Below are positions 1-41,980 of a stretch of 64,000 bases of DNA, piece by piece. The DNA lies in assembly GCF_025685415.1 (NCBI RefSeq), contig NZ_JAGSYB010000001.1:2542001-2606000 (forward strand). The letters run 5' to 3'. The translations under genes were made by a program, and so were the position numbers. This DNA is from Terriglobus aquaticus. Its GTDB lineage: Bacteria; Acidobacteriota; Terriglobia; Terriglobales; Acidobacteriaceae. Numbering within the stretch: the first letter of the stretch is position 1; the number at the start of each line of letters is the position of its first letter. A model generated the notes under the pieces. It ran no database searches and had not been told where the DNA came from. It saw nothing but the letters and a program-made list of their open reading frames with translations.

Positions 1-2725
1 CGAGGATCGCGCCCACGCCGGCCGATGGCAGCGTGGACAAAATCGTGATGGGGTGGATGTAGCTTTCGTACAACACGCCCAGCACGATGTACACGGTGAT
101 GAGTGCGGCCAGGATGAGCAGCGGTTCATTGCTGAGCGACGCTTCAAACGAAGCCGCCGTGCCCTGGAAGCTGGCATTCACACTGAGCGGCAGGTTCAGT
201 TCCTTCACGGCCTTGCCCACCTGCTTCACGGCATCGCCGATGGCGTACCCGGGTGCCAGGTTGAACGACAGGTTCACCGACGGGAACTGCCCCTGGTGCG
301 AGACGGCCAGTGTGGTGTTCGTCTGCTCAAAGTGCGTAAAGGTGCTGAGCGGAACCTGGGTGCCGTTGCTGCTCTTCACGTAGATGTTGTCGAGCGCGGC
401 GGGATTGCGCTGGAACTTGGGCGCGACCTCCAGCACCACGTGGTACTGGTTCTGCTGGGTAAACATGGTGGACACCTGCCGCTGCCCAAAGGCGTCGTAC
501 AGGGTGTCGTCGATGTTCTGCGGCGTGATGCCGAGGCGGGATGCCGTGTCGCGATCGATGACCAGGCTGGCCTGCAGGCCGTCGGTGGTCTGGTCCGTTG
601 CGACGTCGGCCAGGGCGGGCAGCGTCTTGAACTTCTGCAGCAGCAGATCGGAGTAGTGCACCAGCTCGTCCGAGTTGGCGTCCTCCACAGAGAACTGGTA
701 CTGAGTGCGGGCAGTGCGAGTGTCGACGGTCAAATCCTGCAACGGTTGCAGGTACGCCTGGATACCTTCCACCTGGTTCAGCTTGGGCTGCAGTCGGCGG
801 ATCACGGCCACGGCGTCGGACTTGCGGTCTTCTTTGTCCTTCAGGTCGATTTGGATGCGGCCGGAGTTGAGCGTGTTGTTGGTCGCGTCGATGCCGATGT
901 ACGAGCTGATCGATGCAACGTCAGGATCCTGCAGGATCTGGTACGCGAGTGCCTGCTGCTTCTGGCTCATCGCGGCGAAGCTGGTGTCCTGCGAGGTGTC
1001 CGTGATGGCAAGCAGCTCACCGGTGTCCTGCACGGGGAAGAAGCCCTTTTGCACGACGGCGTACATGAAGAAGGTGAGTGCAAAGGTCGCCGCGGTGACG
1101 AGCAGGGTGATCACCTGGTGGCGTAGAACGAAGCGCACGCCCACGGCGTACTTGGCGATAACCCAGTTGAAGAAGTCTTCGCTGCGCTTGTAGAACCGCC
1201 CCTTCTGACTGTCAGGGGTGTGGCGGAGCAGTTTGGCCGCCATCATGGGCGTGAGCGTCAGCGAGACAACAGCCGAAACCAGGATGGTCACGGACAAGGT
1301 GACCGCAAATTCGCGGAACAGCCGGCCCACGATGTCGCCCATGAAGAGCAGCGGAATGAGCACTGCAATGAGCGAAATAGTGAGCGAGAGGATCGTAAAG
1401 CCGATCTGCTCCGATCCCATCAGCGCTGCTTCCAGCGGCGAGTGCCCTTCCTCCAGGTAACGGTCGATGTTCTCGACCATCACGATGGCGTCGTCGACGA
1501 CGAAGCCGGTGGAGATGGTCAGCGCCATCAGCGACAGGTTGTTGAGCGAGTAGCCCAACAGATACATGACGCCGAAGGTGCCGATGATCGAGAGCGGCAC
1601 GGCGATGGATGGAATGATCGTGGCGCGCCAGGAACGCAGGAAGAGGAAGATGACCAGGATAACCAGGCCGATGGTGAGCATCAGCTCGAACTGGACGTCT
1701 TTGACGCTCGCGCGGATCGTGTTGGTTCGGTCGGTGAGCACCTGCAGCTTGACCGAGCCAGGCAACGTGGCCTGCAGGCGTGGCAGCAGCGCCTGAATGC
1801 TATCGACCACGCCGATGATGTTTGCGCCGGGCTGCCGCTGGATGTTGACGATGACCGCAGGGTGGATCTGCGCGCCTTCGCCGTCTTCTGCGGCGCGGCC
1901 CATCCACGCTGCCTGGAACGCATTCTCCGCACCGTCGATCGCGTTGGCGACATCGCGCAGGTAGACCGGCGAGCCGTTGCGGTACGCAACGATGGTGTTG
2001 TTGTAGTCCTTGGCGGTGAGCAGCTGGTCGTTGGCGCCAATGATGTAGCTCTGGTGCGCTCCGTTTAGGTTGCCCTTGGCCTGGTCGACGTTGGCGCTGG
2101 CCAGGGCGGAACGCAGGTCCTCCAGCGACAGACCCTGCCCTGCCAAGGCGGTCGGATTTGCCTGGATGCGCACACCCGGCTTCTGGCCGCCCGCGATGCT
2201 GACCAGCCCGACGCCGGACATCTGCGAGATCTTTTGCGCCAGCACAGTGTCGGCAAGGTCTTCGACCTTGGTCAGCGGCAGCGTGTCCGACGTTAGCGCT
2301 AACGTCAGGATCGGCGCGTCTGCCGGGTTCACCTTGTTGTAGATGGGTGGGTTCGGCAGATCTTTCGGCAGGTAGCTTTGCGCGGCGTTGATCGCGGCCT
2401 GCACGTCCTGCTGGGCGACGTCGATGGACTCCGACAGATTGAACTGCAGCGTGATGATGGAGCCGCCACCGGACGAGGTGGAGGTCATCTGGGTCAGGCC
2501 GGGGATCTCGCCGAACTGCCGTTCCAGCGGTCCGGTCACGGCGGACGCCATCACGTCAGGGCTGGCGCCGGGGTAGAACGTCTGCACCTGGATGGTGGGG
2601 TAATCCACCTCAGGAAGGGCGGAGACCGGCAGCTGGAAGTAGGCGACCGCACCCGCCAGCAGGATCGCCACCATGAGCAGCGCCGTGGCAACCGGCCGAA
2701 GGATAAACGGGCGTGAGGGACTCAT
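1..2725 (-). CDS. RND multidrug efflux permease, MdtB/AcrB type (3' end beyond window)
   Basis: Inner-membrane proton-driven pump subunit that would export drugs or other small molecules through a periplasmic adaptor and outer-membrane channel. Reading the minus strand from the ATG at 2725 gives MSPSRPFILRPVATALLM, the usual start of the family, then the porter domain with LPEVDYPTI and GLTQMTS. The TM4 signature ISTGFVVDDAIVMVENI, with the paired Asp of the proton relay, lies near residue 405. About 908 residues are visible and the family is about 1,040 long, so roughly 130 C-terminal residues lie left of position 1. It is probably co-transcribed with the adaptor upstream (gap 134 bp). Substrate unknown; the sequence resembles MdtB/MdtC more than AcrB. 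Confidence 0.93.
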   Translation of the reverse strand, partial: MSPSRPFILRPVATALLMVAILLAGAVAYFQLPVSALPEVDYPTIQVQTFYPGASPDVMASAVTGPLERQFGEIPGLTQMTSTSSGGGSIITLQFNLSESIDVAQQDVQAAINAAQSYLPKDLPNPPIYNKVNPADAPILTLALTSDTLPLTKVEDLADTVLAQKISQMSGVGLVSIAGGQKPGVRIQANPTALAGQGLSLEDLRSALASANVDQAKGNLNGAHQSYIIGANDQLLTAKDYNNTIVAYRNGSPVYLRDVANAIDGAENAFQAAWMGRAAEDGEGAQIHPAVIVNIQRQPGANIIGVVDSIQALLPRLQATLPGSVKLQVLTDRTNTIRASVKDVQFELMLTIGLVILVIFLFLRSWRATIIPSIAVPLSIIGTFGVMYLLGYSLNNLSLMALTISTGFVVDDAIVMVENIDRYLEEGHSPLEAALMGSEQIGFTILSLTISLIAVLIPLLFMGDIVGRLFREFAVTLSVTILVSAVVSLTLTPMMAAKLLRHTPDSQKGRFYKRSEDFFNWVIAKYAVGVRFVLRHQVITLLVTAATFALTFFMYAVVQKGFFPVQDTGELLAITDTSQDTSFAAMSQKQQALAYQILQDPDVASISSYIGIDATNNTLNSGRIQIDLKDKEDRKSDAVAVIRRLQPKLNQVEGIQAYLQPLQDLTVDTRTARTQYQFSVEDANSDELVHYSDLLLQKFKTLPALADVATDQTTDGLQASLVIDRDTASRLGITPQNIDDTLYDAFGQRQVSTMFTQQNQYHVVLEVAPKFQRNPAALDNIYVKSSNGTQVPLSTFTHFEQTNTTLAVSHQGQFPSVNLSFNLAPGYAIGDAVKQVGKAVKELNLPLSVNASFQGTAASFEASLSNEPLLILAALITVYIVLGVLYESYIHPITILSTLPSAGVGAIL

Positions 2726-40650: not shown

Positions 40651-40723
40651 ACCTGTCTATTGTCGCCGATGCGCTATAAACGAGACATACACGCCAAGTG
40701 AATCGGAACAAAGGAGCAGACAC

Positions 40724-41980
40724 ATGCCTCGTGATCTGAACCGTCGCGCGTTCTTGCAGGGATCGGCTGCGCTGACTGGAATGGGACTAGTGAGTGGGTG
40801 CGCGAAACGCGCCGGTGTGCCCCTTGCCGCGCAGGCGACCGCGCCGGGAGCGGTGGCTGCGCTTCCCTTCTACGACATGCCGGGGCCGATCGTGCCGATC
40901 CGGGCGGACATGGATCGCATCTTCCGCATCACGGTGTGCCTGCGGCCTTTCCGCGCGGCAGGACCGCGGCTGGAAGTGGAACGAATTGCGGATGCCACAG
41001 TGGTGCACAACTACGGTCACGGCGGCAGCGGATGGTCGCTGTCGTGGGGTGCGGCGGACCAAGCCGTGCGCACGGCGATGCAGGCCGCGCCGGGAACGCG
41101 GGACGTGGCGGTGATCGGGTGCGGTGCTATAGGCCTGACGGCCGCACTGACGGCGCAGCGAATGGGTCTGAACGTGACCATCTATGCGAAGGAGAGGCCG
41201 CCGTATGTGCGGTCGAGCCGCGCCACCGGGCAGTGGACGCCCGATTCGCGCATTGCGCTGGCGAATGTGGCTGCGCCGGACTTTGCGCAGCGTTGGGAGC
41301 AGATGGCTCGCTTCTCGTTTGGCATGTACCAGAGCTATCTTGGTTCGCCCGGTTCGCCGATCGAGTGGACCGACCGCTATTTCCTCGAGGATCCACCTGC
41401 GGCGACGGCAGGGCGGGCGGCGGAGCAAGCCGAGGAGCACCAGTTTGCGCGATATCGGAATCGGATCGCGGATCTGACGCCGCAATGGAAGAACTTGCCG
41501 GCGGGGGTGACGCCGTTTCCAACGAAGTCGGTGCGGCAGTCGAGCACACTGACGTTTAACGTGGCCAGTTACTCGCGGCAGTTGATGCAGGAGTTCCAGA
41601 TTGCCGGTGGACGCGTGGAGACGCGCGAGTTCCACTCGCCGGGCGAGCTGGCGCAGTTGACACAAAAGCTGGTGATCCACTGCACCGGCTACGGCGCGCG
41701 CGCGTTATTTGCGGATGAGAGCGTGGTGCCCGTGCGCGGTCAGATTGCATGGCTCATTCCGCAGGAAGGCGTGAACTACGCATTCTTCTACAACGGTTTG
41801 AATGTGGTGGGACGGCGCGATGGCATCGTGATCCAGCCGGACAATGGCCGCGGTGATGAGGACGGGTGGAACCGTACCGATGAAGAGCCGGACCGTGCAG
41901 AAGCAGAGGGCGGCGTTCGCATTTTGCAGGAGCTGTACGGGCGCATGAAGCCCGCGGCAGCGAGGCGCGGCAACGCATGA
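40724..41980 (+). CDS. Tat-exported D-amino-acid-oxidase-like FAD enzyme, circularly permuted
   Basis: A 418-residue FAD-dependent oxidoreductase of the DAO family, probably a Tat lipoprotein: NRRAFLQGSAALTGMGLVSGC has the twin-Arg motif and a lipobox. AAAGGAG lies 8 bases before the ATG. The unusual point is domain order. In normal D-amino-acid oxidases the FAD-binding GxGxxG strand is at residue 5-10 and VIHNYGHGGxG is near the C-terminus. Here LRPFRAAGPRLEVERIADATVVHNYGHGGSGWSLSWG is at about 72-109, before VAVIGCGAIGLTAALTAQRMG at about 128. The C-terminus ends after the substrate domain and a helix (GVRILQELYGRM). Predicted to oxidise a D-amino acid or related amine in the periplasm; substrate unknown. 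Confidence 0.83.
   Translation: MPRDLNRRAFLQGSAALTGMGLVSGCAKRAGVPLAAQATAPGAVAALPFYDMPGPIVPIRADMDRIFRITVCLRPFRAAGPRLEVERIADATVVHNYGHGGSGWSLSWGAADQAVRTAMQAAPGTRDVAVIGCGAIGLTAALTAQRMGLNVTIYAKERPPYVRSSRATGQWTPDSRIALANVAAPDFAQRWEQMARFSFGMYQSYLGSPGSPIEWTDRYFLEDPPAATAGRAAEQAEEHQFARYRNRIADLTPQWKNLPAGVTPFPTKSVRQSSTLTFNVASYSRQLMQEFQIAGGRVETREFHSPGELAQLTQKLVIHCTGYGARALFADESVVPVRGQIAWLIPQEGVNYAFFYNGLNVVGRRDGIVIQPDNGRGDEDGWNRTDEEPDRAEAEGGVRILQELYGRMKPAAARRGNA

What the first reader, a model, noticed from the sequence alone, without database searches (positions are those of the whole stretch)
40724..41980. Circularly permuted D-amino-acid-oxidase-like enzyme exported as a Tat lipoprotein
The conserved C-terminal block of DAO enzymes, with LRPFRAAGPRLEVE and VVHNYGHGGSGWSLSWG, is at residues 72-109, before the FAD-binding VIGCGAIGLTAAL at about 128. 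In known D-amino-acid oxidases the order is the reverse, and the C-terminus after the substrate domain here ends without that block. The chain also has a twin-Arg signal and a lipobox Cys, whereas classical DAO enzymes are soluble and intracellular. The result is a possible periplasmic, membrane-anchored oxidase with joined ends relocated.
Basis: partly seen in the sequence, partly recalled or inferred. Interest (0 to 1): 0.72.

Follow-up and report, generated by a model that had tools for sequence, protein, structure and literature searches.

The report
Circularly permuted, exported D-amino-acid-oxidase relative
A bacterium related to soil Terriglobus, and many of its relatives, carry a D-amino-acid-oxidase-like enzyme whose protein chain has been cut open and rejoined at a new point, and which is probably sent out of the cytoplasm; the rearrangement is well supported and seems to have happened once, but what the enzyme does has not been tested.

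Summary
The 418-aa protein at 40724-41980 carries the DAO C-terminal block (LRPFR...NYGHGGSGWSLSWG, residues 64-121) before its FAD-binding GxGxxG, with no second copy behind. A profile of 16 normal-order relatives finds its two parts in swapped order. Cutting the chain at residues 117-123 and rejoining it raises the mean alignment score from 132 to 227; 81 of 81 permuted homologs gain, 0 of 16 normal-order controls do. An AlphaFold2 model (pLDDT 75.5) matches D-aspartate and D-amino acid oxidases from residue 1 to 264-269, stopping where the moved piece should follow. The permuted order occurs in Acidobacteriota, Alphaproteobacteria and one Xanthomonas; the tree fits one rearrangement (100/98). 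By motif, 75 of 81 look Tat-exported, 63 with a Cys. Function is inferred: a periplasmic FAD-dependent oxidoreductase of D-amino acids or similar compounds. Next to cytochrome c and D-aminoacylase-like genes in one alphaproteobacterial clade, and next to Rieske/cytochrome b genes in one acidobacterium, it may be a dehydrogenase. The Arg283 and Gly313 sites of DAAO are kept (81 of 81); the Tyr228 site is Asn in the window protein. Ten literature searches showed no description of it.

The parts
40724..41980 (+). whole gene: circularly permuted DAO-family flavoprotein, 418 aa
   Evidence: homologs
40710..40716 (+). likely ribosome-binding site AAAGGAG, 7 nt before the ATG
   Evidence: read from the sequence
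40742..40747 (+). twin arginine R7 R8 of the N-R-R-A-F-L-Q motif
   Evidence: invariant in the 11 rows
40790..40801 (+). lipobox V23 S24 G25 C26
   Evidence: a Cys after the RR stretch in 63 of 81 permuted rows by the loose rule
40913..41086 (+). relocated DAO C-terminal block, residues 64-121 (four strands and a helix in the model); holds R74 (Arg283 site of DAAO) and G101 (Gly313 site)
41087..41098 (+). new junction (residues 122-125) between the old C-terminus and the old N-terminus
41099..41944 (+). FAD-binding Rossmann motif (G132, G134, G137) and substrate domain, residues 126-407; aligned to DAAO residues 1..268/269 in the model
41777..41803 (+). residues 352-360: Y352 (Tyr in 80 of 81 permuted rows), Y356, and N360 at the site of the substrate-binding Tyr of DAAO

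Best explanation
The gene encodes a naturally circularly permuted relative of D-amino-acid oxidase and D-aspartate oxidase within the PF01266 (DAO) flavoproteins. The piece from the strand carrying the substrate-binding Arg to the C-terminal helix has moved to the front and is joined straight to the first Rossmann strand; the new ends lie between the helix after the substrate domain and that strand. The chain should still fold into the usual DAO shape and bind FAD. It is probably exported folded by the Tat pathway and, in most Acidobacteriota members, tethered by a lipobox Cys. It most likely oxidises D-amino acids or closely related amines outside the cytoplasm, passing electrons to O2 or, in some lineages, to cytochromes encoded next door. 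Shown by computation: permutation, homology, a tree fitting one event, conservation of the Arg283 and Gly313 sites. Inferred: the fold in detail, export, FAD binding, substrate and acceptor.
For: Swapped profile halves, 85.8 + 61.3 bits. Rotation scan 132 to 227; 81 of 81 homologs gain, 0 of 16 controls. Block ahead of the Rossmann motif in 76 of 76 rows where both patterns were found, by 31-67 aa, and ahead by position in the other five; 279-299 aa behind it in the 15 normal-order rows where both were found. Tree: 50 permuted and 14 normal rows split by one branch, 100/98. Model pLDDT 75.5, pTM 0.77; best PDB rows are DASPO 6rkf (Z 20.0, 254 aligned, rmsd 3.1) and mammalian DAAO entries (Z 18.5-18.9), model 78/81..361/362 to chain 1..264-269. 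R74 and G101 in 81 of 81; roles of Arg283 and Gly313 from passages of PMC6279847. Context: cytochrome c directly downstream in 3 of 44 flanked loci, with D-aminoacylase-like (PDB 3gip 1.2e-56, 1m7j 5.7e-55), amidase, or peptidase and serine-hydrolase genes; Rieske and cytochrome b/c genes 67 nt downstream in one acidobacterial genome, G093.
Against: No activity data. The Tyr228 site is Asn here and Tyr in only 24 of 81 permuted rows against 15 of 16 normal ones, so the substrate may have shifted. No functional partner next to the window gene (YchF, MOSC, DUF892, DUF2911), and no neighbour is general in the family. No coordinates or PAE were given, so the place of the block in the fold was not superposed. 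Cytochrome neighbours were seen in 4 of 44 loci only. The first structure job, with 4 rows, failed (pLDDT 44.8).
Confidence: 0.78

Rival explanations
1. The permuted fold is right, but the substrate is not an ordinary D-amino acid: an opine, N-substituted or otherwise modified amino acid, or another small amine.
For: Change of the Tyr228 site in many members and a new near-invariant Y352; residue 104 is W in 54 of 81 permuted rows and V, F or Y in 15 of 16 normal ones; the flavin-containing opine dehydrogenase 7fgp also matches the model (Z 16.0).
Against: Arg283 and Gly313 sites invariant; the closest solved relatives are DAAO and DASPO; D-aminoacylase-like neighbours at two loci of one genome and a serine hydrolase with a sub-cut-off D-aminopeptidase match at one.
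Confidence: 0.3
2. A fusion or relic: a stray DAO C-terminal fragment became fused in front of a truncated DAO, and the product is not a working permuted enzyme.
For: Broken copies exist: G005 (L030) and a Mesorhizobium plasmid copy annotated as two ORFs.
Against: Block and main part are both conserved over Acidobacteriota and Proteobacteria; one-branch split in a tree of the joined pieces; helix running into the Rossmann strand in the model.
Confidence: 0.04
3. A cytoplasmic enzyme; the N-terminal stretch is not a working Tat signal.
For: Pfam TAT score under cut-off for P0001, and only 1 of the 11 rows of A1 reaches E 0.001 with that model; two permuted rows (L111, L145) show no signal.
Against: Twin-Arg with a hydrophobic stretch in 75 of 81 rows, 63 with a Cys (loose rule); some proteobacterial ones instead end in AxA-like sites (read by eye).
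Confidence: 0.1

Closest known systems
D-aspartate oxidase / D-amino acid oxidase (human DASPO 6rkf, pig and human DAAO, 1c0i DAAO, Rasamsonia 7ct4)
   Same: Same PF01266 family, same FAD motif, same GHGG block, Arg283 and Gly313 sites, best sequence and structure matches in the PDB
   Different: Order of the chain; predicted export; Tyr228 site is Asn in the window protein; activity untested
Normal-order bacterial DAOs of Actinomycetota (L008, L149-L159) and of one Acidobacteriota genome (L075/L123)
   Same: Homologous over both pieces
   Different: Block 279-299 aa after the Rossmann motif instead of 31-67 before it; on the other side of one branch of the tree
DadA-type D-amino acid dehydrogenase
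   Same: Would work alike if the acceptor is the respiratory chain; a DadA-like gene (361 bits, cut-off 383) lies in the Kozakia cluster
   Different: Usual order: Pfam DAO profile 1-352 in one stretch; another subfamily of PF01266

Membership tests
PF01266 DAO superfamily | Profile match above the curated cut-off | tested here: met
   85.6 bits against 27.9; 11 of 11 rows of A1 match at E 0.001 or better
DAAO/DASPO enzymes | GxGxxG FAD-binding motif | tested here: met
   G132, G134, G137 in 81 of 81 permuted and 16 of 16 normal rows
DAAO/DASPO enzymes | GHGG block with the substrate Arg and Gly (Arg283, Gly313) | tested here: met
   R74 and G101 in 81 of 81; pairing with Arg283 from the 8hy5 alignment and with Gly313 from the pig alignment, numbered by hand; roles
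DAAO/DASPO enzymes | Block at the C-terminus (usual order) | tested here: not met
DAAO/DASPO enzymes | Tyr228 equivalent | tested here: not met
   N360 in the window protein; Tyr in 24 of 81 permuted and 15 of 16 normal rows. Paired through the 1c0i and 7ct4 alignments; that this site equals mammalian Tyr228 is recalled, and the loop is hard to align
DAAO/DASPO enzymes | DAO fold | tested here: met
   for residues 123-407: Z 20.0 to 6rkf; the moved block was not superposed
DAAO/DASPO enzymes | FAD bound, D-amino acids oxidised with O2 | not testable with these tools
   needs purified protein
Tat lipoprotein | Twin-Arg signal | tested here: inconclusive
   NRRAFLQ present, but Pfam TAT 17.0 bits, under its 22.7 cut-off; loose rule met in 75 of 81 rows
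Tat lipoprotein | Lipobox Cys | tested here: met
   VSGC at 23-26; RR plus Cys in 63 of 81 rows
Tat lipoprotein | Export and lipid attachment | not testable with these tools
   needs fractionation and labelling

The most novel reading that the evidence does not exclude
A whole clade of exported, circularly permuted DAO-type flavoproteins works as periplasmic D-amino-acid dehydrogenases that feed electrons to the cytochromes of the respiratory chain, supplied by D-aminoacylases and D-peptidases; opening the chain at a new place freed the N-terminus from the Rossmann core, so that a Tat signal and lipid tether could be added.
Probability: 0.3. Interest if true: 0.78.

Novelty: new variant of a known kind. 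Interest (0 to 1): 0.62.

Why it matters
DAO is a much-studied flavoenzyme fold, and all 17 DAAO/DASPO sequences of the PDB that matched have the usual order. A natural permutant, conserved in at least two phyla, would show that this fold tolerates new ends, give protein engineers a template, and point to an unstudied extracytoplasmic route for D-amino acids. The one plasmid annotation of an intact copy that I saw calls it simply 'FAD-dependent oxidoreductase', so the feature is easily missed.

Tried and rejected
The first AlphaFold2 job, with 4 rows, failed (pLDDT 44.8); the second, with 8 rows of which two were normal-order homologs, worked. A best-domain HMM comparison of native and rotated chains did not separate them (rotated better in 40 of 81, median -0.1); I put this down to HMMER splitting both into two domains, and then used semi-global alignment over the whole chain. 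VIA-align keeps chain order, so only model 78-362 is tested there. I first took Y352/Y356 by eye for the two DAAO tyrosines (note); the alignments place N360 at the substrate-Tyr site instead. Neighbour clustering and a scan of the window's neighbours gave no general partner; the Rieske and cytochrome b genes of G093 were found in no other locus held, though many loci have only short flanks. The gene picker missed the DAO gene in some loci (L115, L116, L120, L126, L143, L006), which one search mended by using all open frames. A normal-order query found nothing in viral contigs. Papers: ten searches of an open-licence library; three of them listed nothing, and no listed title or start of abstract describes a permuted DAO; subscription papers are not covered. 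I read passages of PMC6279847 only; all other papers were seen as search listings. Labels S12, GTA, and the equality of the substrate Tyr sites are recalled.

Full report
WHAT IS THERE. The gene runs from 40724 to 41980 on the + strand, with AAAGGAG 7 nt before the ATG. The 418-aa product has, in order: a twin-Arg stretch (R7 R8), a lipobox (V23-C26), a spacer, the DAO C-terminal block (64-121), a short junction (122-125), the FAD-binding motif (VIGCGAIG, 130-137) and the substrate domain to about 407. Pfam DAO matches 127-394 to profile positions 1-288; the block given alone has DAO positions 308-350 as its best match (E 6.7e-4, 19.7 bits, under the whole-protein cut-off). DAAO and DASPO chains of the PDB match both parts in swapped order (alignments).

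IS IT A TRUE PERMUTATION. I collected 97 distinct homologs: 81 with the block ahead and 16 with it behind; two broken copies (L030, L102) were dropped before the count. Both motifs were found by pattern in 76 of the 81, always with the block first, 31-67 aa ahead; in the five others (L064, L067, L076, L078, L100) one pattern failed and the order follows from the block's position. No row shows the GHGG pattern twice. In 15 of 16 normal rows both patterns were found, the block 279-299 aa behind. A profile built from the 16 normal-order rows finds two domains in the window protein, 85.8 and 61.3 bits, in swapped order. Sliding the cut point along the chain, the mean semi-global score against the 16 rises from 132 (native) to 227 at residues 117-123, next to the junction; shuffled chains give 11.5 (maximum 17.2). 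All 81 permuted rows gain on rotation at the expected place (median +84, least +48), none of the 16 normal-order controls does (median -181). An earlier best-domain comparison was uninformative (40 of 81).

STRUCTURE. With 4 rows AlphaFold2 failed (pLDDT 44.8). With 8 rows it gave pLDDT 75.5 and pTM 0.77. In protein numbering (model plus 45) the block forms strands at 66-71, 74-77, 83-88, 91-96 and a helix 104-121 that leads into the first Rossmann strand (127-131). Foldseek ranks DAAO and DASPO first. VIA-align pairs model 78/81..361/362 with residues 1..264-269 of DASPO and mammalian DAAO (Z 20.0 for 6rkf, 254 aligned, rmsd 3.1; 18.5-18.9 for DAAO entries), leaving the last part of DAAO and the first part of the model unpaired, as a permutation predicts for an aligner that keeps chain order.

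HOW WIDESPREAD. Matches of the permuted profile: 57 of 399 genomes sampled from the window's class, one of them (G005) a broken copy; 21 of 247 sampled from the phylum, one of them (G578) normal-order, the two samples overlapping; 15 of 289 from the class of the alphaproteobacterial genome G444, one (G1176) normal-order; 2 of 274 from the class of the Xanthomonas genome G443, one (G841) normal-order. Of 149 genomes from the phylum of the actinobacterial genome G445, 12 matched a normal-order query, all 12 in normal order. Three of 72,556 plasmid records hold a relative, one of them the split copy. Other phyla were not sampled. In a tree of 64 rows (50 permuted, 14 normal; rows over 70% identical left out), one branch separates the two orders with support 100/98; this fits a single event, though the tree is unrooted and some rows are very long (L096, L159, L081, L145). 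The single Xanthomonas case among 274 suggests transfer.

ACTIVE SITE. In human DAAO, Arg283 and Tyr228 hold the substrate carboxylate and Gly313 (with the flavin) its amino group (PMC6279847, passages). The sites of Arg283 (R74) and Gly313 (G101) are kept in 81 of 81 permuted rows. The substrate-Tyr site is Tyr in 15 of 16 normal rows, but in permuted rows Y 24, N 23, H 10, S 7, F 5, L 3 and others; it is N360 here. Y352 is Tyr in 80 of 81 permuted rows and in none of the 14 normal rows whose residues were printed. So chemistry of the DAO type is likely, with an altered substrate pocket. The loop is hard to align, and the equality with Tyr228 is recalled.

EXPORT. By an automatic, loose rule 75 of 81 permuted rows have a twin-Arg and hydrophobic stretch, 63 of them with a following Cys. 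Of the six others two are cut by contig ends (L013, L087), L144 visibly has both features but escaped the rule, L096 looks Sec-like, and L111 and L145 show no signal. The rule picked a spurious upstream RR in a few rows (L019, L070). The Xanthomonas protein, several alphaproteobacterial ones (L007, L084, L099, L100, L101) and two from the wider phylum (L073, L074) lack the Cys. Permutation is therefore not strictly bound to export.

CONTEXT AND MECHANISM. The window gene stands between YchF (divergent) and DUF892 and DUF2911 genes, with no obvious partner. In Kozakia baliensis the gene is followed at once by cytochrome c and preceded by an S9 peptidase, PF00144 serine hydrolases and a DadA-like dehydrogenase. 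Genome G444 has four paralogs: one followed by cytochrome c and a D-aminoacylase-like gene, one by cytochrome c and an acetamidase/formamidase, one beside another D-aminoacylase-like gene on the opposite strand. Cytochrome c lies directly downstream in 3 of 44 flanked loci (L103 and L136 among the 44 are probably the same gene). In acidobacterial genome G093 a Rieske gene and a cytochrome b/c fusion gene follow 67 nt downstream on the same strand. I read this as: hydrolases release D-amino acids, the permuted enzyme oxidises them outside the cytoplasm, and in these lineages cytochromes take the electrons. For the window protein the acceptor is open. All of this paragraph's mechanism is inference.

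VERDICT. The permutation is as well shown as sequence can show it; one origin is well supported; enzyme activity, substrate, acceptor and lipidation are inferred. It is a relative of DAAO/DASPO with a new chain order, not a demonstrated DAAO.

Noticed in passing
L144 1-5412; L146 913-4014: In contigs of the viral collection the permuted DAO gene follows a phage-type terminase gene (33 nt in L144, which also has a portal gene further on; about 510 nt in L146). Possible cargo of phages or gene transfer agents, or an insertion.
   Followed up: partly
L102 2953-4016 (Mesorhizobium onobrychidis pOM4): The permuted gene is annotated as two overlapping ORFs, split in the FAD motif region; the front ORF shows no signal peptide.
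   Followed up: partly
L030 (genome G005): A decayed copy of the gene in a same-genus genome, in two frames.
   Followed up: no
L074/L122 (genome G623): A longer linker: the block-to-Rossmann distance is 67 aa instead of mostly 31-37.
   Followed up: no
L140 7114-8295 (genome G1073): A very divergent permuted row with a Sec-like signal in a 1.9-Mb genome.
   Followed up: partly
genomes G444 and G484: Four permuted paralogs each in one genome.
   Followed up: partly
L106 9323-11365 (genome G093): Rieske and cytochrome b/c genes directly downstream of the permuted DAO gene; not seen in the other loci held.
   Followed up: partly
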